64,000 bases of DNA from Magnolia sinica. Lineage: Eukaryota > Streptophyta > Magnoliopsida > Magnoliales > Magnoliaceae. Positions 34,806-63,308 of this stretch are shown one piece after another. A program made the translations under genes and the position numbers. The notes beneath the pieces are model-generated. The model had not been told where the DNA came from. It searched no databases and was given only the letters and a program-made list of their open reading frames with translations. Positions within the stretch are counted from its first letter, which is position 1. Each line of letters starts with the position of its first letter. The stretch is from the NCBI RefSeq assembly GCF_029962835.1, contig NC_080582.1, positions 19,166,032 to 19,230,031 of the forward strand, read 5' to 3'.

Positions 34806-35240
34806 TAAAACACCCAAGCTTATGGGCCCCACCATGATTTATATGTAAAATCCACTCCGTCCATAAGGTCCTGCTCTCTATTCTAGGATCGAGGAAGAAA
34901 AATCAGCAAGATAGGATATTCAGGATGGCCACGCCATAAGGAAAATTGGGGATGGGATGGCAACGGTAGGTTTGCGTGTGGGGCCACCATGGTGTGTATC
35001 TTTCATCAAACCGGTTAATCACGTGTAACTCACCAGAACGGAGTAAAAATAAAAAAAATCCTGCCCGATACAAATATCAGGTTTGAGGAGTAGTTTTATG
35101 TTGTTCTCACTGGATTGGCTGCTAATAGTTTTTATGAGGCAGATCTTTTGTGTGTACGGTTAAAATAATGTTTATTACACGATAAACGGAGTGGATTTGC
35201 ATCTTATACATGGTGGGACATACATAGCTTGGGTGTTTTT
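34806..35240 (+). mobile_element. inverted-repeat element, GGCCCACC family, AAAACACCCAAGCT tips
   Basis: Left AAAACACCCAAGCTTATGGG mirrors right CATAGCTTGGGTGTTTTT. CCACTCCGTCCATAAGG on the left pairs with GGAGTGGATTTGCATC on the right. No clear target duplication. It lies about 0.7 kb upstream of the IMP3 ATG. Confidence 0.65.
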
Positions 35241-35293
35241 GGCATCCGCAGGAAACCTGGTGGTGTGGACGGTCCTCATTTTCTTAGCAGAGT

Positions 35294-35752
35294 AACAGCT
35301 CAGTGGGTGAGGCCCACTTACATGTATGTTTTATATATATCTACGCCGTCCATCCGTTTTCCAACATCATTCTAGTACATAGTCCAAAAAATAGGTACTT
35401 CTAAATCTCAGATGGACCACACAGTAGAAATTGAATCCTCACCATTAAAAACTTCCTACGGACCAAAAAAGTTTTGGATCCAGCTTCTATTTGTGTTTTC
35501 CCTTCATCCAGGTTTTTGTGACCTTATCAACAGGTTGGATGGTAGATAAAAATTACAGTGGGCCCTAGGAAGTCTTTAATGGTGGCGTTCAATTACCACT
35601 GTTTTCCTGTAGTGTGGTTCATTTAAGATTGGATCTGCATAATTTTTGGGATTCTGATATACACTTAGTTGGAAAAACGAATGGACGGCGTGGATATATA
35701 AATAACACATCGAGGTGGCCCCCACGGTCAGGGCCTCACGCACTGAACTGTT
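35294..35752 (+). mobile_element. inverted-repeat element next to the IMP3 promoter
   Basis: Left tip AACAGCTCAGTGGGTGAGG mirrors right tip CGCACTGAACTGTT with a GAGG/CCTC inner step. The arms hold ACGCCGTCCATCCGTTTTCC and its complement. The right arm carries GTGGCCCC at 35715-35722 and the left GAGGCCCAC at 35309-35317, both site II / TCP-like. It ends about 37 bases before the telo-box and about 170 bases before the IMP3 start codon. Confidence 0.7.
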
Positions 35753-35788
35753 GCCTCACCAAATCCACGCCCTCCCTCCTGGCACTTT

Positions 35789-35801
35789 GTTTAGGGTTTA
35801 A
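35789..35801 (+). promoter_or_regulatory. telo-box in the IMP3 leader
   Basis: TTTAGGGTTTAA lies about 125 bases upstream of the IMP3 ATG. Telo-boxes (AAACCCTA) are known in plant promoters and leaders of ribosomal-protein and rRNA-processing genes, where they act with site II (TGGGCY). A long CT-rich stretch (about 35803-35890), typical of plant 5' leaders, follows. CTCTCAG at 35884-35890 could be the acceptor of a leader intron, but I cannot show this. Confidence 0.6.
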
Positions 35802-35923
35802 GTCTCTCCCTCTCTCTTTTTCTTTCTCTTTCTCTGAGGTTTTAAGAGCTTTTCTATCTCATCATTCTCTGGTCTCTCTCTCTCTCTCAGGGTTTTTTTC
35901 TTTGGATTCTTGAGTGAAGGAGG

Positions 35924-36057
35924 ATGAGGAAGCTGAAGTATCACGAGAAGAAGCTTCTGAAGAAGGTGAATTTCCTGGAATGGAAGACAGAAGGCGGTCA
36001 TCGGGAAGCCCTTGTCATGCGCCGTTACCATGTTGTCGCCAGAGACGATTACAAGAA
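35924..36057 (+). CDS. IMP3: IMP3 exon 1
   Basis: Encodes residues 1-44 and two bases of codon 45, ending in DDYKK. The donor is AA|GTACGC. Reading through the donor gives an unrelated hydrophobic tail, which supports the splice. Confidence 0.93.
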
Positions 36058-39000
36058 GTACGCGCTCCCCATTTCTACTTCCTTTCTCCTTTTCTTTTTA
36101 ATCGCATTCTTTTCAACTATCAACATGAATCCATAGACAAAGATTAATTACAGATTTTTTCTATTAATTCTCTGATGTAGATGTAATGTAAGTTCATCTG
36201 GTGCGTCGCACTTAATTAATTCGCACAGCACGATATTTCATGATCTGGACCGTTCATCAGGATGGTAGGATGATCTCAATGATCGGATGAATTTGACTTT
36301 CTGAATGGTGAGTTATTAATGGACAGCAGAAACAATTATTGGAAATGGTCAGTAACGAGTAGGATTATCCATTCCATTCTCATCCATGGTGGGACCTGAC
36401 CTATCGAGGTCCATGACCTGGACCATTCATCAGGTGTGTCCTTGCCATGGATGGGCTGCTAGTTGAAAATCGAATGAAATGACTGATACAGGCCGTCCAC
36501 TTGGTGGGCCTTTTCCTGTCGATGCTGGTGCCTGTGCCAATATGCATTCTTAGGGTTTTGATTGGATATGGTGCCCCGAATCACAGTTACTATACGGGGA
36601 CAAGTTTTCTCCATTGCATTGCATCCTAGATGGATAAGGCGGGGAGTCCAAAGTGGTTACTGGAGGATGTCGGTTACACTCAATGTCTCACACTCCAAAA
36701 AAAAAGAAAAAGGCATGAGAATATATGTAGTTATATGATGCTCTAGCTGCAGATGATGCTTGATACATATGCACTGAGAAGTTCTCATGGTATAAATTAA
36801 CTCAAAAGTAAACCACCTGAATTGTGGAAGTCACTGTAACTAAGTCAGAAGCCCAAAATCAGCTTGAACAATCCTAACACTCTGATTCGAGAATACTCTT
36901 TTGATGAAATAAGACCATACTCTTTTGATGAAATAAGACCATTGGGTATTTTTTATTTCAACCGTCCAATAATCGTCCACCGTTTGAAGATTTTTGAGGC
37001 AGATACCAATGACTGTAGTACCCATGTATCCTGTAACAGTGGGTGGAGAGTATGGCAGGAGCAAACATAATTTTTTAGCTTATAAGAAAGACGAGTTTTC
37101 TTTTAGTTTTACCTCTTCTACTTCCACTTCTCCTCCTTCCTTTTTTTTTAAAAAAAAAAAAGAAAAAAGGAAAAAAGAAAAAGAAAGGGAGAATAGAAAA
37201 TTTATTAGAACACATGCTAAAAGGTGAGAAAAGAATACAACCCAACTCTATATCTCAAAAAGAGGAGAGGCTAGCAGTCTTTGCTTTATTTACAAAAGAA
37301 GCCCAATCCAAAACGGAACTTTTAATTTCTCTAATTACTTCTTCCACGGAAGATCCCTTGTTCCGAAAGCAACAACTATTATGATCACCCAAATATATCA
37401 AAGGATTGCCATAATTAGAAACCTCCAAATTGCCTTTCTAGATTTCCCAGTTCTACCCCCTCACCAGGCCCAAAGAAGATCCTCTACCGAATTGGGCATA
37501 ACTTGATTGGTATGAAGAATGCTGAAGAAGTCCCAAACCTTTCGAGCAAAAGAGCAGTGGATGAATAGATGTTCAATCATCTCCACATTCTCCATGCACA
37601 TCAAGCATGTATTCGAAAGCACAAGAGACCTTTTTTGCAAGTTGTCAGTCATTAGCATTCTTTTTCTTCCCACAAGCCACACGAATTTCCTGGATCGGTG
37701 AGCTTTCCTGACCATCTGATTCCATCTTCAGACGAAGGAACCACATTCTTAAATAAATCCAACAATCCTGTTAATTCCACAATTTCATCTTCCAAAAGAT
37801 TCCTATGGCAAGGAGGGAGGATGGTCAATATGTGTTGCCCCTTCTTTAAAAAAAAGTGTTGTCCTATTAGGGCTGACATGTTGAGAGGTATGATAATGTC
37901 AACCTTCCACCTTCTTGGTGCTATCATAAGTAAGCCATGATCCCACAATCATGCTTCAGTGACAATACAATCCTTCGAGTAACAAACCTGAATGTAGGCC
38001 ATTTAAAATATTCTTTTAGTGACATAAATTCATCTACAGATAATGATGGTCAGAATAATCCTCTTAGCATATGTTTCTTACAATGGCCCTAATAGCATGG
38101 AATCCCGTACGTGGGAAGTTCTGATCATGATACCATCTAAACATGTGGGGCCCCATGGGTCAAAACATGCTAGGATCCTGAGTTGCTGTATGGGCAAAAT
38201 GAACTCATTCTGCATTGAGGATTTCAAGATTCTCACCAGCCTGATTTTTTTGGAAGTGTGAAGGTTGAAGGTGTGTAACCAGCATCCTCCAGTTACTACT
38301 GTAGCTGCCGCATCATGTGTCTAGGGTGCATTCTGACGGTGGGAACCCACACTTGTTTGGTTGCTGTGATACATGGCACCATATCCTATCAAAATCTGCT
38401 TTCTTATTGGGCTTCCAATCGAGTCCAATCCAATTGCTTATTAAAAAAAAGGAAAGTAAAAAAAAAAGGTGCTTTCTTACTACCAATTTGTAAATCACCC
38501 ATCAGATTTTTAAGATCATTTGTTCAACGTTATTTCTTTAATGTGATTGAGCAAAACAATAGTTTCCACCAAATCAACGGTGGAAGATCACAGTAAGGAT
38601 CACCGGTGCACCAAATAGATAACCTCTTAATTTGAAATGTTTTTTCTAGCTGAGCCATGGACTATGGAGGCAGTTATATAGATTTTTCTTGTGTCTTTGA
38701 TTTTCAGATATTCAAGTATATGTCGGATGGTGCAAAAGCTCGTAAACGTTTTGAAGCAAATCGATCCAAGAGACCCTTACAGGATTGAAATGACTGATTC
38801 ACTGTTAGAAAAGCTGTGAGTTCTTTTTTACTTGATGAAGCATTAATTAGCATATGAACACTAATATTTTATTGACGATTGTATTCTTTTATGTGTGGCA
38901 GTTTCTTTTTCTTTTTAATTTTTCTGCTAGTTTTATGTACAGAAGTCAATCGTGAGTTCCTGAAACAATTATATGAGTCTCTATGTGCTGAATTAACTTG

Positions 39001-42000
39001 CTTAAATTAGAGAAGATCCAAACCCATGTGCCATGCGAATGCTTTAATATCACATTCAGCCCATGTGACACATGGCATATGTGTATGATGGACGGACCAT
39101 TCATCTGGTAGGCCTCATAGTGGATTGGTCGTAACCCAAAATACATGTTGGATGGATGATCCTAACTATTTCACTAGAAGCATCATTAGAGAAACTGTAA
39201 AAAAGTTCGACTATTGTTTCACTTTTGATGAATAAAAGTTCTCCTGCCTGGTAATTTAGGATCATTTGGTGTATTTGTTATGGAATCAGCAATCCATGTT
39301 GGAGTCCTTGAATGAGCAGCCCAGATGTTATATATTTGAGGAGATGGCGATGGACCAGGTTGGCCCATTACTTTTGCGTTCCGGCTATATGTCAAGGTTT
39401 GGCCTGTAATAGAGGCCTGCAGATCAGTTAGGGGTCGTTTGGCACCATGAATTTGGGGGGATTTCAAATCCCGTGTCTGTTTGACACCATAAAGTAAGAG
39501 AGGGTTTGAAATCCAAGGTGGAAGCTAGGATTACTTCTTGAAATCCTCCCATGAGTCGCATGCGTAACATGTGTGTCACTAGGCTACTAATCTATTGGGC
39601 ACATGGCCTGCTGATGATATCTCCAAACAATTAGATTATCAACTGCATCACTAAAATTACTTTAATAGGATGATCTGTGCGGTCCAAACATTGTCCATGT
39701 AAATCAACGGTTAAAAATCGTTGGTTAGTCGCTCGGATGTGATCCTATGCTTGTGGCCCATCCAGGACTTGGAATTTCATCATTTTTGGCCAAAGTATAT
39801 ATTTCAACGGGCTTATTACAATCATTATGTCAAACATTACATATGTATACTAATTAGGGATATTAAAATTGATTTAGTAATTAAATTCAAACCCCTGTAA
39901 ATATACCATGCACAACTACTTTTGGATTACAGGGGTTTGTGAATCCAGGGCGCCAAACACAACCGGAGGATTCCAAATCCAGGGTGCCAAATGAGGCCTT
40001 ATGGGCCTGATTTTGAAGTTAATAAACAGGACATTCACGGGCTTTGGTTTTGCAAAGGATCAACTCAAGCTGGAGAGCAGAGCCGTTTAGGGTGTTAATG
40101 GCTAGGCTTGGGCGCAAAATCAAAGGCCTGGTTACTGAACCTTCGTGCACTGGCCTGACTTCTAGACCTCATTAATTTAGGTTGGGCTCGGGGAGACCTT
40201 GTTATGGCCCAGATGTGACCCATTGCCCCCCTATATGGGATATCCTTATATTCCTAGGTTTTTCCTTTTTACTGTTTACGCGATTTTATGCTAAAGGGGC
40301 ATGATCCTGACGGAATGACCTCATCTTTGTGTTGAAATTTACCTAATCCCTTTGATTGAATTCGTGTATTTATTTGAACATTTTTTAACTTGATTATACG
40401 TGCATCTAGGATTAGGTCATCACATGTCCCTGCATCAACATGTATGTCACGTAGCCCCATTTGAATTTGTGATATTGTGCATGCAATGTTGCCTTTCCTC
40501 TACTACAATATAAAGTTAGTTTCTCTTGGCCTATTAATTCTCTCAAAATTGCTTGCATGTGAGAGCACTCACAACTCTTTTTTCTCTTGTATTCTCTTTA
40601 TAATGAATTGATTTTTATTTAACCATATTGGTAGTCTTAGACATTCCTAATACAAACTCTCACATAATGGTAAACTATCACAAAGTGGTTAGGACACTTG
40701 TTCCGTCATTTTTGAACACCTCTGTCTAATTTGGGAATGGAGTGCTCATGCATCACTTATTGCACACAAGTTCAATGGAACATCGTAAATGCGTACAAGA
40801 TCTGGAGAACTCATCTGGCAGGCCCCAACGTATAGGCCAGGGTCGAAAAAGAGTTATGTGATGGCTCACAGCTTGCCTGGAACAATACAAAAAATATCGA
40901 ATGGTTTTTCTTTCAATGAGGCGGTTAGGATAATTTGATTGGCCTGGTTTTTTAAGCCTGCCCATACATGGTGTAGACACCTGATGGATGGTTTGAATCT
41001 TGTGTATGTATATTCATATAAGGTGTGGGGAAACGTGCCATAAGTCATGTGCAATTATTCCTCTGCTCAATGAGCTAAGAACTACAAGAAGTGCAGCAGA
41101 AACAGTTCATTTGTTAAGGGTTGCTTCACAGCCATCTACACTAATGCCATGCATCAAATGTATTCTTTGTCATAAAATTCCACACTGACGTGTCTTGGTT
41201 GACTCATCTATCTCTGTTGCTGTGAGAGTTCTTTGCGCTATTATGACACTCCAGAAGAAGATAACCTGCCACTATTCTATAGACTTGGACATTGAATTGA
41301 ACGATTATGCTGTCCAGTTGCTTTCATAACTACTTGCAATTCATTGGCACTTACCTCTAGCAGGATTTGTCGAGACTTGGGGGCGAAAGAGGTTCAATAA
41401 AAAGAAGAGAATTTAAAGGTGAGCCAGGCATGCGACTGAGACGTTTGGTCTTTATGCCCCTTGCCCAAGTCCTAGGCAAGCTTGGAAAATCACAGGTTGT
41501 TAGAGTCTTCATGTTGGACCGTGACTTGCCGGAGTCAAACCTATTTTTCTGCCACGCCAGGTAAAAGGTGTAGACCCAATGAAGCTAAACGTCTACATGA
41601 GTCAGGCGAGTCTGAGTTTTTAGTGGTGCGGTGACTCAACTAAGTCAAGAGAAACCCATCTGAGTCTGTTGACTTGTTTTTGTTTTGTTCTTAGTGCTTG
41701 GTAAGGGGCTTTGCCAAACCCCAACACTCATCACCATTGATTAGAGGTTCCTTGTCCAATCAGAGAACTTTCTTTCCCTCTTTCTTCTGGTCTTATAAAG
41801 CAGCGTGTAGCTGCTGGCAGGAGGGAGAGTCTTGACAGTGGACAATCTCCAATGGCGAGGTTTTGTTCTCCCTAACATCTGCCTCCTCTGTCTTCACAAC
41901 TCAGAATCCATTCCTCACCTTATCCTCCACCGTTCTTTTGCTGCTGAAGTTCGATCATCCATCTCCTGAATTCCATGTTCCTTGGGTGATGCCAGACTTG

Positions 42001-45000
42001 ATTCAAAGCCCTCCTTTTTGCTTGGAACGGCTTAGATCTTGGGAAGAATTCCAAGGCTGTTTGCAAGATAGCAGTGATGGCTACTCTATGGGCCCTTTGG
42101 AAAGAAAGGAATAAGCACTGTTTTCGAGATCTCTCTTCCTATTCCTCTTCTTTCTCAAATCTTATTATACAGTGTTAGAAATATCGGTATCGCACAATGT
42201 ATCGCACCCTTGGGATACAGATACGTATCGGTTATCGCACGGGATTTATCGTTTGTATCGCATAGTTTATCGCACTTTTTGGGAAACATGGGGAAACATT
42301 GGGAAAATGGTTGAATTTTTTAATGAAACTTTGGGGATTGTTAAAAAAGCCCTTAATACACACTTTTAAATCATAAAGTTTCAAAAAAGAAGTGTACATA
42401 ATAAATTTCCTTTGTATAAGGTCCCAAGCTGTGCGCTGTCCGATTGAACTAAAACAACTATATTCAGTATCAACCCCGTTCATCCATTTTTCCATATCAT
42501 TTCAAGACATTATCTAAAAAATAAAACAGATCCAATAATTAGGTAGACCATACCATAGGAAACAATGGTGATTGACCATTAGTGGGCCACAAAAGTTTTG
42601 GTTCAGGCTAATAATAGTTTTTTCTCTTCATTCAAACCATAAATTTATCTGGTAAAATGGATGGACGGAGTGGATAAAATACATGAATTATAGTTGGCCC
42701 ACAAAGTTTACAAAGTACACTACTCATTAGGGGATCCACTTCCCACCACACTGGGGGTGGGGTGCTGCTACCAAGTTCCTTCGCTCAAAACCTATGTGGG
42801 GTCCACTATGATGTTTGTAAGAAATCCACCTTGTCCATTCATTTTTTGAGATCATTTTAGCACTTGAGAGCAAAAGTGAGCAGAATCCAAGACTAAAGTG
42901 GGCCGCACTAAAGGAAAAGGTGGGTAGGAAAATTCCTATTGTTGAAACCTCCTTGGGTCGTAGGGCCCACGATAATGTTTATTTTCTATCCAATCTATTA
43001 ATTAGGTCACACAGACCTGACCTGAATGAAGAGGAAAAATAAATATCATATTGATCCAAAACTTCCGTGACCCTCAAAAGGGTTTCAATGGTAAACGTTC
43101 AATCTACCACTGCTGTTTGCAGTGTGGTCCAGTTGATCTTTGGATCTGTCTTATTTTTCGGCTCAAGCCTTACAAAGAGCTCGCCAAATGGAGGAACGGC
43201 CTGGATATAACAAATACCTCATGCTGGGACCCACAGAACTTGGTGACGTCAACACAGTTCGGTCGTGCGCCGTGCGCGCATACTCGATTACATTAAAAAA
43301 AAAAGGGGCGGGATTAGCTGAGTAGCGAGACTCGCTACTGAATTGACGTCACCAAGTTCCGTGGACCCCACCATGATGTATGTTTTGTATCCACACCGTC
43401 CATTAATTTGTAGAGAACATTTTATGCCATTAGCCTAAGAATGACTAAGATTCAAAGCTCCAATGGACCCCACCACAGAAAGCAGTAGAGAGAGTGACGC
43501 CCACCATTAAAAACTTCTGAGGGCCACAAAAGTTTTCGATTAAGCTGATATATTTTTTCCCCTTTTATAATGCCTTTTTTAACTTATTAACGGGTCGGAT
43601 CTCAAATAAACATCACGGTGGACCTTAGGAAGGTTTCAACGGTGTATGTCACTTTCTCCACTGTTTTCTGTAGTGGGGTCCATTACAGAATTTTATCTCC
43701 CTCGTTATTTGACTCATGTCCTAAAATGATATCTCCAAATGGATGGACCGTGTGGATATAACACATTCATCATGGTGGGACCCACGTAACTTGGTGACGT
43801 CACTTCAGTAGCGATCTCGCTACTCAACCTGTCAGTAGCTAATCCGCGTCCGAGAAAAAAGGCTCGAACGGCCTTTGGTTTTCAAACAGAGAGGGTTCCG
43901 GAAACCAGAACCCTAAAATCTCCCCCAAATCTCATCGGATGTCGCCGGATTTCTCTCCAAAATCGGAGATGTTATTTGCGGTAACCCAGGAATGGCGCTT
44001 CAATTCGAATGGCCCACCAAATGGAAGCTTCCGATCATGGCGATCTCTTCTACAAGTACCGAAATCCACCCTCTATTTTTTTTTCCCGATTTTTTCGGAT
44101 GATGACGTCGATGTCCGACAATAATGGAGAGGAAATCGCGTGATATCGTCAAAATATCGTGCGATATCGACGATATATCGGCCGATATCTGGATTTTGAG
44201 TTTTTTGGTATCTTCCGGGGGTTATCGTGACTGTATCGTCTCGCAGGGGTGCGATAACGATAATATCGGCCGATATATCGGCCGATAGTATTGATATTTC
44301 GAACACTGTTATTATATGGGATCTTAAGGATCGGTCGTTTAGTCCAAAACTTATAGACAAAATTATCATCTCCTTGATCTTGGATTAGTGTTGTTGCTTC
44401 CTGGAAGCTTGGTCTCGGGTAGTATAGCTGTTTTTTTTTTCCTGCTGTTTCCTTTGGGCGTTTTGCCTCATTTAATACATTTCTTTTCAATCTTCCAAAA
44501 AAAAAAAAAAAAAAACCATTGTGTTGTTGGTAAAAAGGCACATAAAAGCTATGTAACATATCATATTTCTAGTATCCTTTAAAGGAAAAAATTATACTAT
44601 AAGTCTATAATTATTAATATTATGAGTATATTATTTTAGCATGATATATAACCTTCTTTTAGCTTGGTGTCTCTGCTTGTTTTATTTTTCACTTCTCTGT
44701 TTTTCAGTTTTGGCGTGCAAGTTTAGTGATGCCAAGGTATTATGCAATGGTAACGGCCGGTGTATTGGCCAGCTTGTTGGCAGATATGATATCGGTTGTA
44801 CCAGCCAACACTCTTTTGTGGGAAGAAATCTAAAAAAATTATTGGTAAATTTCCCTCCAAGAAAATGCGAGGATTCTAAATATGTATTCTTTTTCGTTTC
44901 GAACACGTATTTGATGGTGTCACGGACCACTTTGGTAAGAATGTTGTCTGTCAGGAAGTTTTAATTTGACCTGCTGAAAGTCGACCAAATAGGCCCTAAT

Positions 45001-51000: not shown

Positions 51001-53869
51001 CCTTATTGAGAAGAGTGCAAAGTAAAAAAAATAACTAGGGAAGAAAAGAGTTCTAGATGCCTTCTTCTTCTTCTTCTTCCTCTTTAGATTCTAGGAATCT
51101 CCAAAAGCCAGCCCAATGACGCATCGAATCTCCTTCTAGTTGACCGGCGGCGTTTTCTGCAGGGAACTTGATGCAGGACAACTAGCCACTTACTCTAAAA
51201 GCTCGAACTGATAGAGCATGCTGAATCAATCCCTTTATCTCATAGCCCAGGCCCCACATCCCATGGGTTAGGACCTTGGCTGAACCCCCCTCACGGTCCC
51301 TACTTCACATGGGTTCTGCTTCACACAAGCCACCCGCTTCACACGGGCCACCCACTCCGAGTTTGCCCCTGCGTTCCACAGGCCACCCCACTTGAGCCCG
51401 ATGTGAAAATGCCCTTGCATTAGAACTCCAGTTGCACCAATAAATACAGAGAACAAAAGATTATGATGTAGGATGGAATGATCTAACCTAACATGATGCC
51501 GTGAAATTAAAAGACATATTAACTAGAGTAACGGAACAACAAAATAAAGCTAATTTACCATAAATTCAGATTCATGATATGTCCAAATTCAAGCCTACAA
51601 CAGTCCTGCAATGCAAATCTCATAAATTACTGATTAACTAGGACCTATGGGAGATAAAACCCCCATCATAGCATAGCGTTAAATCTGACTTTAATGAAAA
51701 TCATGTGTCTTGTATGAGTTTGGACATGTTAGGGCGGTTTAAAGGCTAGGGAATGTGGGAAATGGGTTTGGGGTATCTAGGCTTAGATGAATTAAGGTTG
51801 AAGCTTAGGGTTGAGGTTTTAGGTTGGGATTTCAGATTTGAGGTTAAGGGTTTTAGGACTTGGGGTTTTTAGAATTAGGAATATGGGTTTCAGGTTGTGG
51901 GAATTAGGGATTTATGATTTAGACAAGGGATTTTAAGATTTTGGTGATTTGGGTTTGAAAAAAATTGAGGGTTTTGGAAATTAGGAATATGGGTTTCAGG
52001 TTGTGGGAATTAGGGATTTATGATTTAGACAAGGGATTTTAAGATTTTGGTGATTTGGGTTTGAAAAAAATTGAGGGTTTTGGAAATTAGGGTTAGGGTT
52101 TGGTTAGGTTGAGGTTTGATTGGATATGCGTTCTGGGGAGACAAAAGAAAATTCATAGAAGAGAGATTGGGGAAAGTAGAGAAAGAGAAAAGAGAAGAGA
52201 AGAATGAAGATAATACCTTATTGAGAAGAGAGAAAAGTAAAAAAGATAACTAGGGAATCGCTCCTGTGGTTTTGCACCACCAATCCAATCATAGGATAAT
52301 TTTTTTTTTGCTCAATCTCAAAGCAAAAGTAGAAAAATCTCTTTCATTGATAACATGCATAATGGCTAGGGTGGGGACGCCCAACCCTTTGTAGTCTAAA
52401 AAAAAAAAAAACTTTTTTACAAAAAGCCACTCTCAAATAAGATTCTCAACATAAAAATGCTTAAAGAATTAAGAGTTATTCCTAACTCCATAATCTCAAG
52501 ACAAATACGAGTCATACAAAAAATAACGAAACGTGTAAACAAACTAAACAACTAAACTATTTCGTGGCCCATGGGGGTCCACGATCAAGACGTCCAATGA
52601 TGATGATCCAACTGTCAGAATGGTCCACAATCAAAATCCAACGGTCCGATCACCATATTAACTTGATCCAACAGTCTGATGTGTCCATCAAGCTCATATA
52701 TGGAGCCCATGTGCATCTCTCCTGTGTGGGGTCCTCAAAGATGAACAGACATGCACGAGGGGTCTTCAACGTGGCTAGGAATGTGAATTGGGCCAAGTGG
52801 GCCCCATGTGATGGTCGTCTAGCCATAAGGAGACTGGCTCGGCCCTCCTTTGGTATGGTCCTCATCAGATCAATCGTTTTTTTTAACATTTCAGTTAGTA
52901 TAAGTTGGTCCCATGGTTCAGTGATTCACACTATTGATATGACAGGCTCCACCATGGCCCATGCTCCATAACTCCCTCGCATGGAAGATCTAGTCATGAC
53001 ATCTTTGGCCTTTTCTGGTTGAATGTGCACTGTTCCTGTATTGGATATTTTCGTTATTAACTGTCTAATTTATTGGCCACCAATTAAGGCTTAGGATTTT
53101 CCTGTCATTACTCTTTCCCCATCCTGGAGACTCTGTGCATGGCCCATCCATAGTGGACCCCACTTTTTTACAAACTGCAAACCAGAATGTAATGTTCAAA
53201 CTACAAACTCTTGGCCCAGGAATTGTGTTACAGCATCGCTGATCTACTGATGCCCAACCTGTCATGTAACACTAATAAATGTAATGCCCTTTTTCCTTAG
53301 AAACATGCCCCTTTTTTGTTAATTAACACTATATCACATTAGGACATGATATGGTGGGTCTTTTTTTCTTTTTCACTTTGTCATTTCTGAATTTTCCTAA
53401 GCCCACATGCATGATGCAATAAAGCTCATGTACATGCCACACATGCTAGAATGGAACACATTTTCTTTCCTGTTTGAGATGTCTATTATAACTTAGATGA
53501 CAGTGGCCGTTGGCCAGTTCTCAGCACTGATGGTGAGGCCTTTATTTAAGCTGCACTGAAATTCTGTGATTCTTGAAACACTAACCATGGAGAAATCAGT
53601 CATCTCATCAACTTTGTATATGCATTTTTACCCGCAGGCGTAGGTTATCAACGATTCTGGTGAAGTTGAAGTTTGCAGAGCACTTGAGAGAAGCCGTTAC
53701 ATACATTGAGCAGGGCCACATCCGAGTGGGCCCAGAAACAGTTACAGATCCTGCGTTCCTTGTGACGAGGAACATGGAGGATTTCATCACGTGGGTAGAT
53801 TCATCGAAGATAAAGAGGAAGGTGTTGGAGTACAATGAGAGATTGGATGACTATGATGCAATGAACTGA
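35924..53869 (+). CDS. IMP3: IMP3, U3 snoRNP protein (four exons)
   Basis: Nucleolar U3 small nucleolar ribonucleoprotein IMP3. In known systems it joins MPP10 and IMP4 and helps U3 snoRNA pair with pre-rRNA for 18S processing. I assembled four exons: 35924-36057, 38708-38815, 47618-47692 and 53638-53869. Every intron has GT-AG ends, and the joined length is 549 nt, giving 182 residues plus stop, close to the usual ~183. The N-terminus [20 protein letters not shown] is the family signature. The S4 RNA-binding domain covers about residues 107-165, including [20 protein letters not shown], and the C-terminus is acidic. Introns are 2650, 8802 and 5945 bp and full of transposon remnants, yet no exon shows a disabling change. 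The ATG at 35924 starts the conserved N-terminus directly. Identity is very secure; the exon borders come from reading frame, splice consensus and family recall. Confidence 0.95.
37140..38030 (-). mobile_element. L1-type LINE 3' fragment in IMP3 intron 1
   Basis: The minus strand encodes the end of LINE ORF2: first [20 protein letters not shown], then, after small frame breaks, the zf-RVT zinc-binding region with [18 protein letters not shown] and SFARKVWDF. The 3' tail is A/T-rich and ends in a homopolymer run near 37140-37160. 5'-truncated. Confidence 0.75.
38708..38815 (+). CDS. IMP3: IMP3 exon 2
   Basis: Follows the acceptor TTTTCAG and ends at the donor GTGAGT. It encodes residues 45-80, reading [20 protein letters not shown] and continuing to [10 protein letters not shown], a strongly conserved IMP3 stretch. 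It is too short to stand out as an open frame. Confidence 0.93.
39431..39998 (+). mobile_element. PIF/Harbinger (Tourist-like) MITE
   Basis: Terminal repeats GGGGTCGTTTGGCACC and GGGTGCCAAATGAGGCC are flanked by the 3 bp duplication TTA (39428-39430 and 39999-40001), as in the PIF/Harbinger superfamily. 568 bp, no coding capacity, inside IMP3 intron 2. Confidence 0.8.
42455..42715 (+). mobile_element. short GGCCCACC-family copy inside the hAT-like element
   Basis: CAACCCCGTTCATCCATTTT on the left pairs with AAATGGATGGACGGAGTGG on the right, with a shortened core between them. Confidence 0.55.
42775..43265 (+). mobile_element. inverted-repeat element inside the hAT-like element
   Basis: The left arm has GTGGGGTCCACTATGATG. 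The right arm has CTGGATATAACAAATACC and GGGACCCACAGAACTTGG followed by a TGACGTCA palindrome. The core contains CAAAACTTCCGTGACCCTC. Confidence 0.6.
43310..43845 (+). mobile_element. long-TIR inverted-repeat element carrying paired TGACGTCA sites
   Basis: The arms are symmetric over about 80 bases: a GGATTAGCT/AGCTAATCC outer step, an AGTAGCGAG hairpin, then TGACGTCACCAAGTT and the family's CCCACCATGATG. TGACGTCA occurs at 43344-43351 and 43795-43802. The core is family-like. No coding. Confidence 0.75.
46452..47488 (+). mobile_element. non-autonomous hAT-like element before IMP3 exon 3
   Basis: Tips TAGGGTTACAACTCAGG and CAAGTTGCAGCCCTA are imperfect inverted repeats. Flanks ATATGAAC (46444-46451) and ATACGAAC (47489-47496) match 7 of 8. 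Inside, a 171-base period direct repeat (46924-47230) holds CAGCATGTGGGCCC twice. No transposase. It ends about 120 bases before exon 3. Confidence 0.7.
47618..47692 (+). CDS. IMP3: IMP3 exon 3
   Basis: A 75-base exon between acceptor ATACCAG and donor GTATGG. It encodes [20 protein letters not shown] then VSSFCR, the family block before the S4 domain. Its phase fits both neighbours exactly. A hAT-like element ends about 120 bases upstream. Confidence 0.92.
48440..48575 (+). mobile_element. tRNA-derived SINE-like sequence
   Basis: CTCCGTTGGTAGACTCTCGG resembles a pol III A box and GGTTTGAGTATCC a B box, spaced as in tRNA-derived SINEs. A GTGAGTATGTGAGGGTG body follows. The ends were not fixed. 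Confidence 0.4.
48791..50104 (-). repeat. 660 bp tandem duplication containing a LINE 3' end
   Basis: Two consecutive units (48791-49447 and 49451-50104) each begin with an ATCCCAAGCAATTAGGGTC-type segment (Au-SINE-like) and then a minus-strand LINE tail. The LINE part encodes zf-RVT sequence such as [16 protein letters not shown] and [11 protein letters not shown]. Both units share the same LINE truncation point, so the segment was duplicated as a block in IMP3 intron 3. Frames carry small lesions. Confidence 0.75.
50845..51082 (+). repeat. fold-back structure with ~36 bp arms
   Basis: AAGGCATCTAGAACTCTTTT on the left and its complement on the right, each edged by GAA/TTC triplets, enclose about 160 bases. 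The interior recurs as a direct copy at 52108-52250, about 95% identical by eye. Confidence 0.7.
51875..52086 (+). repeat. perfect 106 bp tandem duplication
   Basis: Two copies (51875-51980 and 51981-52086) appear identical base for base, so the duplication is recent. It sits in a G/T-rich block of degenerate TTAGGGTTT-like motifs (51730-52110) in IMP3 intron 3. Confidence 0.8.
52108..52250 (+). repeat. direct copy of the fold-back interior
   Basis: Matches 50895-51045 almost base for base, from GAGGTTTGATTGGATATGCG to AACTAGGGAA. It lacks the inverted arms. Confidence 0.7.
53638..53869 (+). CDS. IMP3: IMP3 exon 4
   Basis: Starts after acceptor CCCGCAG and encodes residues 106-182: the whole S4 domain, then [20 protein letters not shown], then TGA at 53867-53869. 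This is the most conserved part of the family. Confidence 0.95.
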
Positions 53870-54855
53870 GTGCTTGTTCTTTTCCTCCCAAAATGAAATA
53901 GAAAAAAGAAAAAAGAAAAAGGAACTGATGGTAGTTGGGAGATGATTTTTGAATATTTCTTTGTTATTTAAACAGTGGAACCCCTTGCTGTAGCTATGGA
54001 ATGCCAGTTTGTGTGTCTCTGTCACAGTGACACATTACAGCAATTGGAGCAATTGAGCCATGAATTGGATCCACCATTGGAGTAGCATTTCAAACACAGC
54101 CTGTTGACGGTGAAGATCCCACTAGTTGTATTGTATGTATTATGCCAAGCATTTTTTTGAATGTAGAGGCTTTCCAGAGATGGAAAGTTGATTCACTGGT
54201 ATGACAGAGGATGAAGGCTAGGCAATTGGATGGATGTCGTGATCCTGCTCTGTTTGGGCCATCAGAATCCGATGAATTTTCTGGAGCCTTGGCCAAGTTT
54301 TGAGCCATTCTACTTGCATTGCTCCATTTTATTCTAAATTTTCAGCTTCTGATAAACTTTGGCATATCTGATGTCGGAGATGTACCAAATGCAAAAAACA
54401 TTACTCTTTATGTCATTCTGGTTACATTCAGTTGATTAGTGCTGCACGCCTCACCTTGGTAAATTGCCTTGAAAAAAACCACAGGTGCACATTTCACCTT
54501 GTTCACTGTAATATTTGGTTCTTGGTCCAAATCTATCTAGATTAAGATTTGAGTGCTTTATTTTGTTTATTAATAATTGTATTTGTTACATGTTAGTATA
54601 TTTTATGTATCAGAAATTTGAAGGGTCTCTTTTTAAATTTTGTTTTTACTAATCTCTAATGTCTTCAAAAATGTTTACTTCAAAGTAAAAAACTTGAAAA
54701 AGAATGTTGTTAAGATCTAAGGATCAAGGACTCCTATCAATAGGTAATGTTGCTCCAATACCTAAGCTAAAAACTATTGCAATACCATTAAAAAATATTG
54801 TAGCAGCTACTGGATGATGAAATGGATTTTGAAATTTATTAACATTCTCCAAAAA
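53870..54855. other. IMP3 3' flank, no further gene recognised
   Basis: Probably contains the IMP3 3' untranslated region. No clear AATAAA signal was found. Nothing else was recognised. Confidence 0.5.
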
Positions 54856-54859
54856 GGGT

Positions 54860-56095
54860 ATTGTTAACCTGGTTCACGAGTTCTCTCCAGAAAGATTCCC
54901 AAAAGAAATCAACAATCAGCATGCTAAATTTCAAAAGAGGCATGATGACTACCTTTTTTTTTCTTTTTCTTCTTTTTCTCTCTGTATTTGCTACTCGTTG
55001 GATTTGTCCCAGACATTTCGTGTCAAGTGATTTATATGAATCATTAATGTTCCTTTCATGGAGACCATTGGTCTATGTAATGTTATGTATAGAATTATTG
55101 CTAAAAAATCCACCTAACCGTCTCCATCCTATCATCTGCACCTCAATTTCCCCCTCCAAGCTGCCTTGTCCTAATATAGATTCATGACATATATTCAAAT
55201 TGGATATTCCTAAAGCTTATGATAAGTTGGAATGAAGTTTTATTAAAAAGGTCATGGAAAGAATGGGATTTCATCATAAATGAATTAGATAGAGAATGTT
55301 GGAAGCCTTTTCTGTTGCCATTTCTGCCATTTCGAATAATACTTTTAGAAGGTTAATTATAATTAACTTGGTGAGTTTGTCCAGGTAAAAGCTGAAAATC
55401 TCACACCTCAAAAGTCTCGAATGATTTTTTTTTTTCAGGAAAAAGGATTTTGCCATAGCTGATGCTTGGGTTCTTTAAAACTTTTGGAGGCAAGCCCAGG
55501 CATGGCAGCCTTAAAGATTTACTGGAGAATCTTAGCTCCAGATCTCAATGATGGAAGAGTAGGCTCCTTTCATAGTCTGGGTGAGATACTCTAATTAACT
55601 TGGTCATTGCGGGCATATGCAAATACACTTAAATGTACCCTCATGCTTGTGAGCAGTACTATTAAGGATATTGAGCATTACCCAGTACGGCTTTCTTTGG
55701 GACTGTTGAGAAGGGCATGGGCCAGCCCAAATCAAATGGGAGACTATTACCAAGCCCAAATACCTTGGTGGCATTGGTACCAAGCCCCTTGAAACCATCA
55801 GTAGAGCTCTCCTCATGAAGCCTGAATTAAGGCTGACCAAAGCTGAAAAGGAGACATGGGCAGCTGTCCTTAAGAGCAAATACCTTAGCGGTGATGATTT
55901 CTAGCAATTCAAAGTAGCCACTAGTCCGACCCATGTTTTGAAGGCATCCTAAACTCCAAGGAGGATCTCAAAGAAGACATTAGATGTGTTGTTGGCAATG
56001 GCGCTGAAATGGATGTGTGGAAAGACGGCTAGTTTCCTTTGGCACACTTGCAGGCCTTAACCTGTGGACACATGATTGAGAATCCAGCGGACTAA
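54860..56095 (+). mobile_element. decayed L1-type LINE (reverse transcriptase part)
   Basis: Plus-strand fragments follow LINE ORF2 in order: an LCNVMYRIIAKK-like block and NRLHPIICTSISPSK near 55.08-55.16 kb, FKLDIPKAYDKLE and SFIKKVMERMGF (RT motif) near 55.19-55.27 kb, KPKYLGGIGTKPLETISRAL near 55.76 kb, and EDIRCVVGNGAEMDVWKDG near 56.0 kb. Multiple stops and frame changes; an old copy. Confidence 0.7.
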
Positions 56096-56189
56096 ATCAC
56101 ATTGCAAACTTGATTCTCCCTGTAATTGACATAATGCACTATTAAATATGGACCTGGAGTAAAGCATCATGTCATGAGAAAACAGATGT

Positions 56190-56365
56190 GCCCTGAAAGT
56201 AAATAGCAAGCTGAATTAAACAATTGAATCAAATATATTCAGATGTATATTTTTATTCTAATGTCATATGAAAACAGATGTTGATTTATATTTAGATGAG
56301 TAATGAAACAGATGTAGATTTTTATTCGGTTATGTTGTAAACCAGATATAGATTTGTATTCAATA
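56190..56365 (+). repeat. ~55 bp AT-rich tandem repeat
   Basis: Three to four units around ACAGATGTAGATTTTTATTC with spacing near 55 bases. Confidence 0.5.
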
Positions 56366-56379
56366 ACTTCATGTCGTTT

Positions 56380-57110
56380 GGACACGGCCCCACATTGATT
56401 CGACACAGTCCATGTCAATTTGGGCAATAGGTTAAGAAAAACACTAAACCCTAAAACCATAATTGCAAACCACAATCACATCAACCCCATGTTGAATCAA
56501 CAACAACCCTAACTACATATTCTATTAGAAGAGCCCCATATTGATTGGCCACTTGTGAATTTTTGCAATTGATAAAATCAAAACCCTAAACCCTAAGTGT
56601 AAACCAAATTCACAATAGTCCTATGTTGAATTGGGCAATGGGTTTGAGCAAAATACAATTGCAAACGAAATTCAGAAGAGCCCCATGTGGAATCGACAAA
56701 GCTCCATGTCGATTCACCCTATGTTAAATCGATCGATTCATCCTATGTTAAATCGGTGGATTGAAGTAAAACCCTACTGCAAGTTGAATTCAGAAGAGTC
56801 TCATGTCAATTTGACAAAGCCCTAGGTTGAATTGGGCAATGGATTGGAGCAAAACCACGTTGTAAATCAAATTCAAAAGAGGCCCATGTGGAATCGAGAA
56901 AGGCCTATGCCGGTTCAATAAAGCCCCATGCCAATTAAACAAAGCCCTATGTTAAATCAATGGATTGGAGCAAAACCTCATTGCAAGTTAAATTCACAAG
57001 AACCCTGTGTTGAATTGACAAAGCCCCATGTTGAATCGGGTAAAGTAAAACCCTAATGTAAAGCCTAATGAAAATCCCATGTTGATTGGGCACTACCTCA
57101 ATTTGAATTG
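56380..57110 (+). repeat. degenerate ~80-130 bp tandem repeat
   Basis: Units carry GGGCAATGGATTGGAGCAAA, then CAAATTCAGAAGAG, then CCCCATGTTGAATCG, five or six times with variable spacing. Confidence 0.7.
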
Positions 57111-57255
57111 AGCATTCAATTATAAATTAAGAGATGTGAGAGGTATGCTTCCATACCAAATGACAAAGAAAAGATGTGGGAGGTGTGAAGGTAGTGCAAA
57201 GGACTGAGTTGAATATTGAATTCTTTTTAGTGGAAAGATGAAAAGGAGATGTTAG

Positions 57256-57256
<1 letters not shown>

Positions 57257-57298
<42 letters not shown>
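57257..57298 (+). repeat. (GA)n microsatellite
   Basis: About twenty uninterrupted GA units. Confidence 0.95.
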
Positions 57299-57299
<1 letters not shown>

Positions 57300-57749
57300 C
57301 AAATGTAAAAGGCTTTGAATTGACCTTAAGGATATACCATACATATCTACTTTAGATGGTAGATAATTATTTGACCTTAAGGATAATTTTGACTTAAAAA
57401 AAAATACAGTTTATGATCATTTACCATACGTATCTACTTTAGACGGCAGACAAATATTTGACTAACTTTTTCAAATTATAGGCACTAATTTAGAAATACC
57501 TTAAAAGCAGGCTTTGAATTGTTGTTGGCCTAAAAGATAAGAGGTTATACATGCAAATTTCAAAGCGGTTCAATGAGTTTAGGAACTAATATATCTTTAC
57601 CAACTCAATCTCACCTCAGTAAGGGAAGGGTGATTCAACCTTATGTATGGTGGCAAATGTAAAAGGCTCAAAAATGATTTTCTTTGAAGATTAATGTGTC
57701 ACATGTAAGGATATCATTACAGTGACCAAAGTTGTGGTCGGCGACACCC

Positions 57750-57890
57750 TGATCCATAGCTCAAGTGGTAGATTGAGTGAAAGATACCTTGTTTCAACAC
57801 TAAGGTCTTGGTATCGATTCCCTAGTGGGGTGGCTAACACTGATGTGTGAATTGACAGTGGGGTGTACTAACAAGCTAACAAAAAAGGAA
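57750..57890 (+). mobile_element. tRNA-derived SINE-like sequence
   Basis: TAGCTCAAGTGGTAGATTGAG (A-box-like) and GGTATCGATTCCCTAGTGGG (B-box-like) are spaced as in a tRNA-derived SINE, followed by a GTG-rich body and a short A-run near 57882. Confidence 0.5.
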
Positions 57891-57939
57891 GAAGTTGTGG
57901 TTTGTGATATTTGTAACATTCATGGACTCAAACATGGTG

Positions 57940-58185
57940 GAGAGTTATTAACTTCAAAGCTCTCGAAGAGGGGACCAAGCTTACTTGAAATGTTTAGAGA
58001 GTCCTTCAATTTCGGAGAATTGGAATCCCCTAAGCTTGTTTGGATTAACTTAAATGTTGATGGGTCTTCAATTGATGATCCACTAATTGATAGTTTGATA
58101 AAGTCATTTATAGTGCCTTTCTAGCTGGTTTGCGTGGAGTGATCTTCTATCAATAAACTTAGATAAGACCTTTCGTTAAAAAAAA
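57940..58185 (+). mobile_element. possible retroposon 3' fragment with RNase H-like residues
   Basis: The frame reads KLVWINLNVDGSSIDDP, like the RNase H part of some plant LINEs, and ends at an A-rich tail near 58170-58190. Weak. Confidence 0.3.
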
Positions 58186-58189
58186 ATAA

Positions 58190-58560
58190 AAATGCACTCT
58201 ATCCATTAGGTGCACCCACTTCATTTGTACATGGATTCCAAAAGCTAGTGTGATCCAAACTTACGTGGGCCACACCACAAGGAACAATTGGGACCCACCA
58301 TTAAAACATGCGTAGGCCATTGTGCTGTTTTGTTTTTTAGTATATCATCTAATCCATTCAGAGGATGCTCACCACAAGGATGAATGGTGGGTCATGTTGT
58401 ATGATTTTAGAGGTTTTAGGCATGATTTTACATTGTCTGACTCACTTGGGGCTTGGATCACGCTTACTTTTGGGATCTACAGATAATATAAGCAGGGCCG
58501 CATGATGGATGGACAGGACTTGCACTCAACATCATGGTGGGCCCTGGTCAATGGATGGAT
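58190..58560 (+). repeat. possible inverted-repeat element of another family
   Basis: ACGTGGGCCACACCACAAGG and ATCATGGTGGGCCC edges with an ATTAAAACATGCGTAGGCC interior resemble a diverged relative of the GGCCCACC group. Confidence 0.35.
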
Positions 58561-59889
58561 TAAGATCATTCACTGTGGGAAATAGGTCATTTTCAGGTTT
58601 TGGAGTGTCCTAGACGATGCAGGTGGCGTTGAAGATTTGGTTTTGGAGATGTTCTTAAACCAGCCAGCCAGCTTCAAAACGTATGCGCGCTAGCGTGCCT
58701 GTATTGATAGTCGTTTTCCAAATAGTCACTGGAACAGCAGAACGTCTGTCCCATCCAAGAGAATCAAAAGAGAAGACTTCATCAACATTGTCCATGGATG
58801 CGGATGGATTAGCGTTGATAATTCCAGATTTCATCAATTCTCAACAAGTTCAAGCCTAGTATTTTTTAGGGCCGGGGTTGGCTAGGCTTTGGGCTTTGAG
58901 CTTGGCCTAGCCTGTCAATTATACCTATGCATCATGCGTGTGGGACATCTGAGCCGTGAAAAAGATGGGCACAACACGAAGGCTATAGAGAATTGTGGAT
59001 GCTCTGATTGAGTGTCATAGATGATACAAAGGCGTATACCCAACGTACCCGTAATTCAAATTAAACCGTCCAAGTTATGGATTCCATTTTAAATGTATCA
59101 TCTACCAAAAAGTTAAGCTTTTTGATTGTCTGAATACCGTATTAGTGGACATTTATTGGACGGTCGGTCCAATTTCAACAAACAAGTGTCCACACAAATA
59201 AGAGGCTAGGATATCTCAGTCAATTTGATTTTGGGACACTGGCTTAGGGACAGTGGTTTTTACAATCTACTCTGTTTAGTTTGAGTTAGTTAGGAAAAAA
59301 TTAGCACCGTAGACTCTTCCATACTATGCTTTTTTATTTCTTTCGACACCCAAAAATTTATGCTACCAAAGTAGATTCGTAGAGTATGGTAATAGAGTCT
59401 TGAACAAAAATACTCTTAATCTTTAGACAAAAGCAGTTGGAAAAGTGAGGGTATTTTCATCTCTATGAGTTCGTCCGTATGGATAGAAGTTTGAATTAGC
59501 GTGTACCACGATTCACATATTCGGAGTGCTTGTACGGTGTGCATCGAGTGTCATCTTCTGCCAGAGCACTAATAAAGTGGGTGAAGATTACCTAGGCTGG
59601 ATCAAGTCATTGGGTGGCCCACACCTGTAACTGTCCTCTGTACATTGATATCAGCATCATGGGCCTGCTCGATGAGCGGTTGCACCGTGTTTATCAATTG
59701 ATACTAAAATCAGGCCCGTCCAACCAGTAAAATAGGCCGCATATTTATTTTGATGTTGCGTTTCCATTGATAAATGGATCTGATCGATTTTCATATTAGA
59801 TGATCATCATAGTATGGCCCACCTTTTCCATGGATTGGATATTCTACTACGTGGCATCTTTGGACTCGGATTGCACACTATAGCTAACA
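58561..59889. other. no recognised gene
   Basis: AT-balanced intergenic sequence without a long frame or recognisable element. Confidence 0.45.
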
Positions 59890-60055
59890 TCACCCACTAT
59901 CGGTACTGTGCGCACTATGATGTATGTATTTTATCAACAACGTCCATCCATTTTTTCCAACTCATTTTAGGGAATGATCCACCGCTTTCTTGTGGTTTGG
60001 TCCACTTCAGATTTGGAGATCTTGAAAAATAGATGAACGGAGTGGATAAAACAAA
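59890..60055 (+). mobile_element. internally deleted GGCCCACC-family copy
   Basis: A left arm (TATGATGTATGTATTTTATC, CGTCCATCCATTTTTTCC) and a right arm (AGATGAACGGAGTGGATAAA) with most of the core missing. It abuts the next copy. Confidence 0.55.
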
Positions 60056-60500
60056 TACAGTGATGTATTTGTTTTATCCACGCCGTTCATCCATTTTGAA
60101 AGATAATTTTAGTGATTGATCCCAAAAATGTGGTATATATAAATCTCATGTGGACCACATCATGGGAAAACATTAGTGACTGAATGTCCACCATTAAAAA
60201 CCTCCTAGGGCCCACTGTAATGGTTATTTGACATCTAACCTGTTGATTAGTTCATACAAACTTGGATGAAGGGAAAAAATATATATCAGCTTGATCCAAA
60301 ACTTTTGTGGCCCCAAGAAGTTTTTAATGGTAGATGTTCAATAAAAACTGTGCGGTCCACTTGAGATTTGGATCAACCTCATTTTTGGGCTCGTACCATA
60401 AAATGATCTGGAAGAATGGGTGGACGGCATGGATGAAACACATACATCATGGTGGGGTCCACAGAGCACCGACCACTAGCCATTGGCTAGTGGCAGGGTC
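60056..60500 (+). mobile_element. inverted-repeat element next to the S21 promoter
   Basis: TGATGTATTTGTTTTATCC and CACGCCGTTCATCCATTTTG on the left mirror GGGTGGACGGCATGGATGAA and ACATACATCATGGTGGGG on the right. The right tip contains GGGTCCAC (60455-60462, a TCP class II-like site) and a perfect hairpin with CCACTAGCCA arms (60473-60493). It ends about 160 bases before the S21 start codon. Confidence 0.7.
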
Positions 60501-60657
60501 AGTAGCGAATCCGATTCCGGCAATCCGTGTGTCGAGGAAAGAAATGCTGTACGATGGCATACAGAATAGCAGCTGTAGGTGTCTGTTCTCCTCCTCCTCT
60601 CCTCTAGTTTTGTAACTGAAAAACCCAAAACCCCAAAGGACAGAAGCATAAGCCTCA

Positions 60658-63205: not shown

Positions 63206-63308
63206 GTTTTCTATGGTTTGAACCACCTGAGTAGATGGGGCTGATTTTTGCACTAGTTGATCCTCATGGTGGGGCCAACCTATTGGCAGGGTTGGATGTC
63301 ATTGGAAG

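What the first reader, a model, noticed from the sequence alone, without database searches (positions are those of the whole stretch)
35294..60500. Promoter-proximal inverted-repeat elements at both ribosome-related genes carry site II / TCP-like motifs
Both host genes belong to the class usually controlled in plants by site II (TGGGCY) and telo-box promoters. Each has a GGCCCACC-family element ending 160-170 bases before its start codon. The element ends contain GGCCCA, GTGGCCCC or GGGTCCAC, which fit site II or TCP (GTGGNCCC) consensus. For IMP3 a telo-box lies only about 37 bases past the element. The family may spread ready-made TCP/site II sites, or insert preferentially near such promoters. 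With two genes this could be chance given how common the family is.
Basis: partly seen in the sequence, partly recalled or inferred. Interest (0 to 1): 0.72.

Follow-up and report, generated by a model that had tools for sequence, protein, structure and literature searches.

The report
Jumping-gene remnants fronting ribosome genes
In this plant genome, remnants of one abundant family of small jumping genes sit right in front of most of the ribosome-related genes examined, and they carry ready-made growth-regulator binding motifs, though whether the plant uses those motifs is untested.

Summary
The elements are real. Each is a ~0.5-kb palindromic, non-autonomous DNA transposon: a Mutator-type MITE with 9-bp target duplications (10 of 33 two-ended copies with at most 1 mismatch, shuffled pairings 0.015). 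The gene-side edges are about 35772 and 60518, so 152 and 140 bases before the ATGs of IMP3 and a bS21-type ribosomal protein gene. A TCP/site II-like palindrome lies ~55 bases inside each TIR of the family consensus.

An element overlaps -300..-100 in 7 of 8 intact intronless ribosomal-protein genes (RPL12, RPL27, RPL27a), 2 of 19 Ras-family genes and 2 of 13 histone genes (Fisher p = 1.3e-4; 6 of 7 after collapsing one tandem pair, p = 4e-4). Insertion appears to have recurred. This best fits known Mutator behaviour: insertion at start sites of highly expressed genes and persistence in proximal promoters. Retention of the motif in gene-facing arms (9 of 10) is not clearly above the family background (52-78%), so exaptation is possible but unproven. 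The sample is small: three ribosomal-protein families.

The parts
35288..35772 (.). Element A: Mutator-type MITE in the IMP3 promoter, with its outer right TIR included
   Evidence: core profile 395 bits (this copy was among the 30 training rows); family alignment
35294..35315 (+). left arm of the 22-nt, 91% complementary inverted repeat (inner part of the TIR)
   Evidence: I4
35731..35752 (-). right arm of the same inverted repeat
   Evidence: I4
35311..35316 (+). site II-like GGCCCA in the left TIR
35715..35722 (+). TCP-like GTGGCCCC in the gene-facing TIR, -209 from the ATG
35792..35799 (-). telo-box (TAGGGTTT), about 20 bases past the true element end
35924..36058 (+). IMP3 first coding exon (45 codons matched)
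34818..35227 (.). second, more diverged element of the same superfamily directly upstream of element A
   Evidence: 41 bits; I5, I6
60058..60518 (.). Element B: Mutator-type MITE in the bS21 gene promoter, with its outer right TIR; a rearranged left part runs from about 59862
   Evidence: core profile 496 bits for the merged stretch 59862-60518 (this copy was among the 30 training rows); family alignment
60455..60462 (-). TCP-like GGGTCCAC (GTGGACCC on the other strand) in the gene-facing TIR, -203 from the ATG
60658..61035 (+). first coding exon of a bS21-type ribosomal protein gene

Best explanation
Both elements are old copies of an abundant non-autonomous Mutator-type (MULE) MITE superfamily. 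Such elements insert at or just upstream of transcription start sites of genes highly expressed in meristems, and insertions in the proximal promoter survive because they seldom harm expression. Ribosome-related genes are among the most active meristem genes (recalled), so in this genome they have repeatedly gained one such element close to the start site. The terminal repeats contain a TCP/site II-like palindrome about 55 bases from each end. Because the element is a palindrome, either orientation places such a motif upstream of the gene, here mostly 150-270 bases before the ATG, near where plant ribosomal-protein promoters carry native site II sites. Shown: element identity, 9-bp TSD of the family, motif in the TIR consensus, enrichment in the small RP sample. 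Likely: repeated independent insertion. Inferred: the targeting mechanism, tolerance, start-site positions, and that the motif is at most a bonus.
For: 9-bp TSDs: 10 of 33 two-ended copies with <=1 mismatch (L049 and L057 share one flank, so 9 separate sites), shuffled mean 0.015; other lengths 0-2 of 33. Overlap with -300..-100: RP 7 of 8, Ras 2 of 19, histones 2 of 13, one-sided Fisher p = 1.3e-4, or 4e-4 with one tandem pair collapsed; RP stays 7 of 8 at 15, 50 and 100 bit cut-offs. RP near edges -88, -95, -142, -145, -168, -176, -210, -339. A random 200-bp stretch of the window, the two focal elements left out, overlaps an element 10.7% of the time. RPL27a paralogues: elements 62% alike, no closer than the C11 copy is to the IMP3 copy (69%). 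Maize Mu prefers sites at or slightly 5' of the TSS, hotspot genes are more expressed, TSDs are 9 bp (PMC2774946, passages). Mu targets highly expressed genes, and old MULEs are purged less efficiently from proximal promoters (PMC7337890, section 10 and passages).
Against: Histone genes are also strongly expressed in dividing tissue (recalled), yet 0 of 13 have an element overlapping -250..-50 (the nearest edge is -251), so expression alone may not be enough. No transposase gene was sought. Automatic search found no clear TSD for the two window copies or for the proximal RP copies; L080 shows 8 of 9 matching bases by eye. Expression and start sites are not measured. The RP set is three families chosen because they were expected to be intronless.
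Confidence: 0.62

Rival explanations
1. Exaptation: copies in ribosome-gene promoters were kept because their TIR supplies a working TCP/site II site at the right distance from the telo-box, replacing displaced native sites, so the element has become part of the ribosomal regulon's promoters.
For: Within -300..-1, 6 of 8 RP genes have a site II or TCP-like match inside the element and 3 of 8 (all among those 6) have one outside it; both window genes have theirs only inside. Gene-facing motif intact in 9 of 10, or 8 of 9 with the tandem pair collapsed. Site II and telo-box lie close together in Arabidopsis RP promoters (PMC3212954, passages).
Against: Family background of intact motifs is 52%, 75% and 78% at 70-80, 80-90 and 90-100% inner identity, so 9 of 10 is not clearly above it. 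RPL12 L080 has lost the motif, and L084 has none within 300 bases.
Confidence: 0.2
2. Chance: the family is so common that two promoters in one window are unremarkable, and the RP excess is a small-sample accident.
For: The elements cover 9.1% of the window. Ras and histone genes have one within about 750 bases in 5 of 19 and 7 of 13. Counting all five dropped L7Ae rows as RP misses gives 7 of 13 against 4 of 32, p = 0.007.
Against: With an assumed background of 14%, P(>=7 of 8) = 7e-6; even at 33% it is 0.0024.
Confidence: 0.1
3. The insertion machinery is guided to site II/TCP or telo-box promoters by bound proteins (true sequence or factor targeting).
For: All 8 RP genes have a telo-box within 300 bases of the ATG, always outside the element, and most elements end near it.
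Against: Among 58 family copies picked by similarity alone, only 1 (L037) has a telo-box within 200 bases of either end, so the family as a whole is not aimed at telo-boxes.
Confidence: 0.08

Closest known systems
Maize Mu / Mutator-like elements (MULEs) and Mutator MITEs
   Same: TIRs, 9-bp target duplication, position just upstream of genes
   Different: No transposase link shown here; the outer TIRs GGGCG(C/T)GGATTAGG and GGAAACGGATTGG are this family's own; the word stem 'ribosom' does not occur in the main text of the two Mu papers looked into
MITE-amplified transcription-factor sites (E2F in Brassicaceae; TCP15/23 in tomato; bZIP60 and PIF3 in Prunus; from passages of the review PMC12595863)
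   Same: A MITE family carries and multiplies a TCP-type motif
   Different: Here the motif is part of the TIR, and copies lie in the proximal promoters of a coherent gene class
Rice OsRpl6-1, whose 5'-UTR came from a PIF/Harbinger element (PMC2631504, abstract and section list)
   Same: A ribosomal-protein gene whose 5' region derives from a transposon
   Different: One gene, another superfamily, UTR rather than upstream promoter
Site II / telo-box module of plant ribosomal-protein promoters (PMC3212954, passages)
   Same: Telo-box near the start, site II/TCP motif upstream of it
   Different: Here the upstream motif lies mostly inside a transposon

Membership tests
Mutator-superfamily MITE | 9-bp target site duplication | tested here: met
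   10 of 33 two-ended copies with <=1 mismatch at length 9 (9 separate sites), shuffled mean 0.015; none found automatically for the two window copies
Mutator-superfamily MITE | terminal inverted repeats, short, high copy number | tested here: met
   outer 60 bases of the A consensus 59/60 complementary; the B consensus as cut gave 14/60 in the same call, apparently because it runs one base past the end, and its ends pair by eye; median span 526 bp over 58 loci; 2,601 exact core-pattern hits, 0 in the reversed control
Mutator-superfamily MITE | no coding capacity; mobilised by a related MURA transposase | not tested
   no autonomous relative was sought
Mutator-superfamily MITE | insertion bias to gene 5' ends | tested here: inconclusive
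   overlap with -300..-100 in 7 of 8 RP genes, but only 2 of 19 Ras and 2 of 13 histone genes
TE-dispersed TCP/site II sites | motif present in family consensus | tested here: met
   palindromes GTGGGGCCCAC and GTGGGCCCCAC at consensus positions 53 and 450 (A), GTGGGCCCCAC and GTGGGGTCCAC at 56 and 459 (B)
TE-dispersed TCP/site II sites | motif bound by TCP proteins and used | not testable with these tools
   needs DAP-seq or ChIP and reporters; the TCP consensus used is from the finding and from recall
Site II/telo-box ribosomal promoter | telo-box close to the start | tested here: met
   8 of 8 RP genes and IMP3 within 300 bases of the ATG; not the bS21 gene

The most novel reading that the evidence does not exclude
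In this lineage a Mutator-type MITE superfamily has re-founded the upstream promoters of much of the ribosome regulon. Independent insertions placed a TIR-borne TCP/site II palindrome upstream of the telo-box in gene after gene and took over from native site II sites, so a transposon end became a shared control element of ribosome production.
Probability: 0.2. Interest if true: 0.82.

Novelty: new variant of a known kind. Interest (0 to 1): 0.6.

Why it matters
Ribosomal-protein promoters are held up as conserved modules. Repeated transposon insertion at nearly the same place in them, each bringing a candidate TCP site, would be a natural experiment on whether a regulon can swap its upstream control elements without losing coordination, and on whether selection or targeting fills promoters with transposons. 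Both can be tested from annotated genomes plus one DAP-seq or reporter series.

Tried and rejected
Rejected: GGCCCACC as the family signature; it is a short motif widespread here (22,186 genome hits of GGCCCACCNNNNNNGG against 913 for the reversed pattern). Rejected: comparison with paralogous promoters of the two window genes. The IMP3 exon-1 peptide has one match; the bS21 protein has one strong match and nine others at E 0.2-0.6. Rejected: L071-L077 as random background (200-bp overlap 0.32), because a query containing the motif-coding stretch brought them in. The first, flank-including profiles could swallow flanks and were replaced by core profiles for the counts. With the first profiles telo-box proximity from the transposon side was 0 of 58, with core profiles 1 of 58.

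Selection of rows. RP: of nine full-length matches without inner stops (RPL27a 3, RPL12 4, RPL27 2) eight were fetched. The RPL27a place on C36 was left out as a presumed duplicate of the C11 one, which was not tested. Fragments and copies with stops were not fetched. L7Ae: 5 of 22 matches fetched, all dropped from the RP count: L086 (RPL7a retropseudogene), L088 and L090 (RPL30 retrocopies), L087 and L089 (RPS12 exon 2, ATG not in view). Counting all five as misses: 7 of 13 against 4 of 32, p = 0.007; with the tandem pair collapsed 6 of 12, p = 0.015. Ras: 19 of the 20 matches that begin at profile position 1 (140 matches in all). Histones: 13 of 83 matches (7 H3, 6 H2B). L122 (ATG uncertain) was kept; without it p = 1.5e-4.

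The -250..-50 interval (RP 7 of 8, Ras 1 of 19, histones 0 of 13, p = 3e-6) was chosen after seeing the data and is not the headline test; one histone edge lies at -251. Motif-retention test inconclusive. Literature calls with malformed terms failed.

Full report
Setting. The window is G000:C10:19166032-19230031 of a 1.84-Gb genome in 127 contigs. Contigs C1 to C19 are large in those seen (69-142 Mb), which suggests a Magnolia-like plant with n = 19. That inference rests on recall; no name is given.

What the elements are. Element A lies before IMP3 and element B before a bS21-type ribosomal protein gene; gene identities come. The two elements are 73% identical over about 400 bases. Genome searches scored the 40 best of 11,623 and 11,726 candidates: A relatives are 76-80% identical, B relatives 89-93%. 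A-type copies end GGGCG(C/T)GGATTAGGTGAGG..., B-type copies end GGAAACGGATTGGCTAC.... Median span is 526 bp over 58 loci. Where both ends could be recognised (33 of 60 loci), the flanks repeat over exactly 9 bases in 10 of 33 with at most one mismatch; L049 and L057 share one flank, so these are 9 separate sites. Shuffled pairings give 0.015, and lengths 5-8 and 10-12 give 0-2. That is the signature of the Mutator superfamily. The single strand of A folds far better than shuffles (z = -11.1). Fetched A copies are a median 81% and B copies 92% identical to their consensus; these are the copies most like the query, so the true spread is wider. A-type insertions are old.

Corrected anatomy. With core profiles (0 hits in the reversed window), the gene-side edges are 35772 and 60518, which is 152 and 140 bases before the ATGs. 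The IMP3 telo-box at 35792 is about 20 bases beyond the element. TCP/site II-like palindromes lie at consensus positions 53 and 450 of the A element (514 positions) and 56 and 459 of the B element (527 positions): GTGGGGCCCAC or GTGGGCCCCAC, and GTGGGGTCCAC at the right end of B. The motifs are thus a regular part of the TIR, not a peculiarity of these two copies.

Testing the association. I located intact, intronless ribosomal-protein genes with single-protein queries: RPL27a (2 fetched of 3), RPL12 (4, in two neighbouring pairs) and RPL27 (2). Controls were Ras-family genes (19) and H3/H2B histones (13). Elements overlapping -300..-100 were found in 7 of 8, 2 of 19 and 2 of 13. Fisher one-sided p = 1.3e-4 against all 32 controls; with the one pair that shares its insertion (L082/L083) collapsed, 6 of 7, p = 4e-4. 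Reversed promoter sequences gave 0 hits with the first profiles. Any element within about 750 bases: 8 of 8, 5 of 19, 7 of 13. So the controls are not poor in elements; they lack them close to the gene. Raising the cut-off to 100 bits leaves RP at 7 of 8, with Ras 1 of 19 and histones 1 of 12, L122 left out. The two window genes raised the question and are not in these counts.

Were insertions repeated? The RPL27a elements on C15 and C11 are 62% alike, less than the C11 copy is to the IMP3 element (69%). The C3 RPL12 neighbours L080 and L081 align only over their gene-side part (68%, including shared promoter), although elements end at -176 and -168 in them, so they appear to carry different copies at almost the same place. 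The C5 pair L082/L083 is 92-96% alike and shares one insertion. In RPL27, L085 has its edge at -210 and L084 at -339. Very old inherited insertions could also look this diverged, so independence is likely rather than proved. L080 shows CTCCAGGTT/CTCTAGGTT flanks by eye. Automatic search found no clear TSD in the proximal RP copies except L091-like and L084 patterns that fall inside repeats, and none in the window copies, as expected for old insertions.

Motifs in these promoters. In -300..-1, 6 of 8 RP genes have a site II or TCP-like match inside the element, 3 of those 6 also one outside it, and 2 of 8 have none; all 8 have a telo-box outside it. Both window genes have the match inside the element only. 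Ras: 1 of 19 inside, 3 of 19 outside. Histones: 1 of 13 inside, 2 of 13 outside. The gene-facing TIR motif is intact in 9 of 10 ribosome-related promoters (8 of 9 with the pair collapsed), plus for L082, whose inner TIR is deleted. The family background is 52% (70-80% inner identity, n = 44), 75% (80-90%, n = 117) and 78% (90-100%, n = 87). This neither shows nor excludes selection to keep it.

From the transposon's side. Of 58 copies picked by similarity alone, 1 has a telo-box within 200 bases of an end (L037). The family at large is not aimed at telo-box promoters. Ribosome genes are a small part of where it lives, but a part that it fills.

Mechanism. Mu elements of maize insert at or slightly 5' of the TSS, favour expressed genes and open-chromatin marks, and make 9-bp TSDs (PMC2774946: passages, abstract among them). 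A later comparison finds Mu at start sites of highly expressed genes, notably in meristem-enriched tissue, and old MULEs persisting in proximal promoters while purged from 5'-UTRs (PMC7337890: section 10 and passages). In that paper GO terms of Mu hotspot genes were general and explained by expression level. Those facts predict what is seen here if ribosome genes are hot targets. The histone result is the main point against expression as the only cause: 0 of 13 overlap -250..-50, though one edge lies at -251. Histone promoters may simply not tolerate insertion so close (inference).

Known context. MITEs that spread TF sites are known, TCP15/23 in tomato among them (review PMC12595863, passages). 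A rice ribosomal-protein gene took its 5'-UTR from a transposon (PMC2631504, abstract). Site II and telo-box sit together in Arabidopsis RP promoters (PMC3212954, passages). A 207-genome MITE survey includes four 'magnolias' and gives Mutator 41.5% of MITEs; the word stem 'ribosom' does not occur in its main text (PMC12550479, passages). The listings of searches showed no report of this association; they cover open-licence papers only, and most listed papers were not opened.

Limits. Three RP families, one genome, no start-site or expression data, no relatives, ATG-based distances. Ras genes may have longer leaders. The profiles come from two subfamilies and may miss others, in all groups alike. 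The enrichment is a strong lead, not a genome-wide result.

Noticed in passing
G000, (places on C8, C19, C6, C10, C1, C9, C12, C7, C85, C18, C15): A C-terminal piece of RPL27a (from about residue 78-99 to 146) recurs at 14 places, 62-75% identical, 9 of 14 with a 77-aa frame: possibly a gene fragment spread by a transposon.
   Followed up: no
G000, (C16, C12, C7, C9, C18, C10, C1): The N-terminal 33-43 residues of RPL12, start codon included, recur at 10 places, 64-91% identical: possibly a captured first-exon fragment.
   Followed up: no
window 34818-35227: A second, diverged element of the same superfamily abuts the IMP3 element on its far side.
   Followed up: partly
window 60750-60783: The first exon of the bS21 gene itself contains GTGGGGCCCA (60750) and GGGCCCCAC (60775), upstream of the conserved domain; the profiles do not call an element there.
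   Followed up: no
L086, L088, L090: Retrocopies of RPL7a (L086) and RPL30 (L088, L090); both RPL30 copies keep a telo-box in the shared leader, so in RPL30 the telo-box seems to be transcribed.
   Followed up: partly
G000:C15:6.2-8.7 Mb: Fourteen partial histone-profile matches (positions 21-61 or about 71-116) cluster in about 2.5 Mb.
   Followed up: no
window 18951-22211 and 61683-63244: Frames that look like a Ty3/gypsy-type polyprotein and a LINE-type reverse transcriptase (from reading the translations only).
   Followed up: no
L037: An A-type copy chosen by similarity alone ends about 12 bases from a telo-box, with a CT-rich leader and what reads as an open frame beyond it: the same layout as the RP promoters.
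   Followed up: partly
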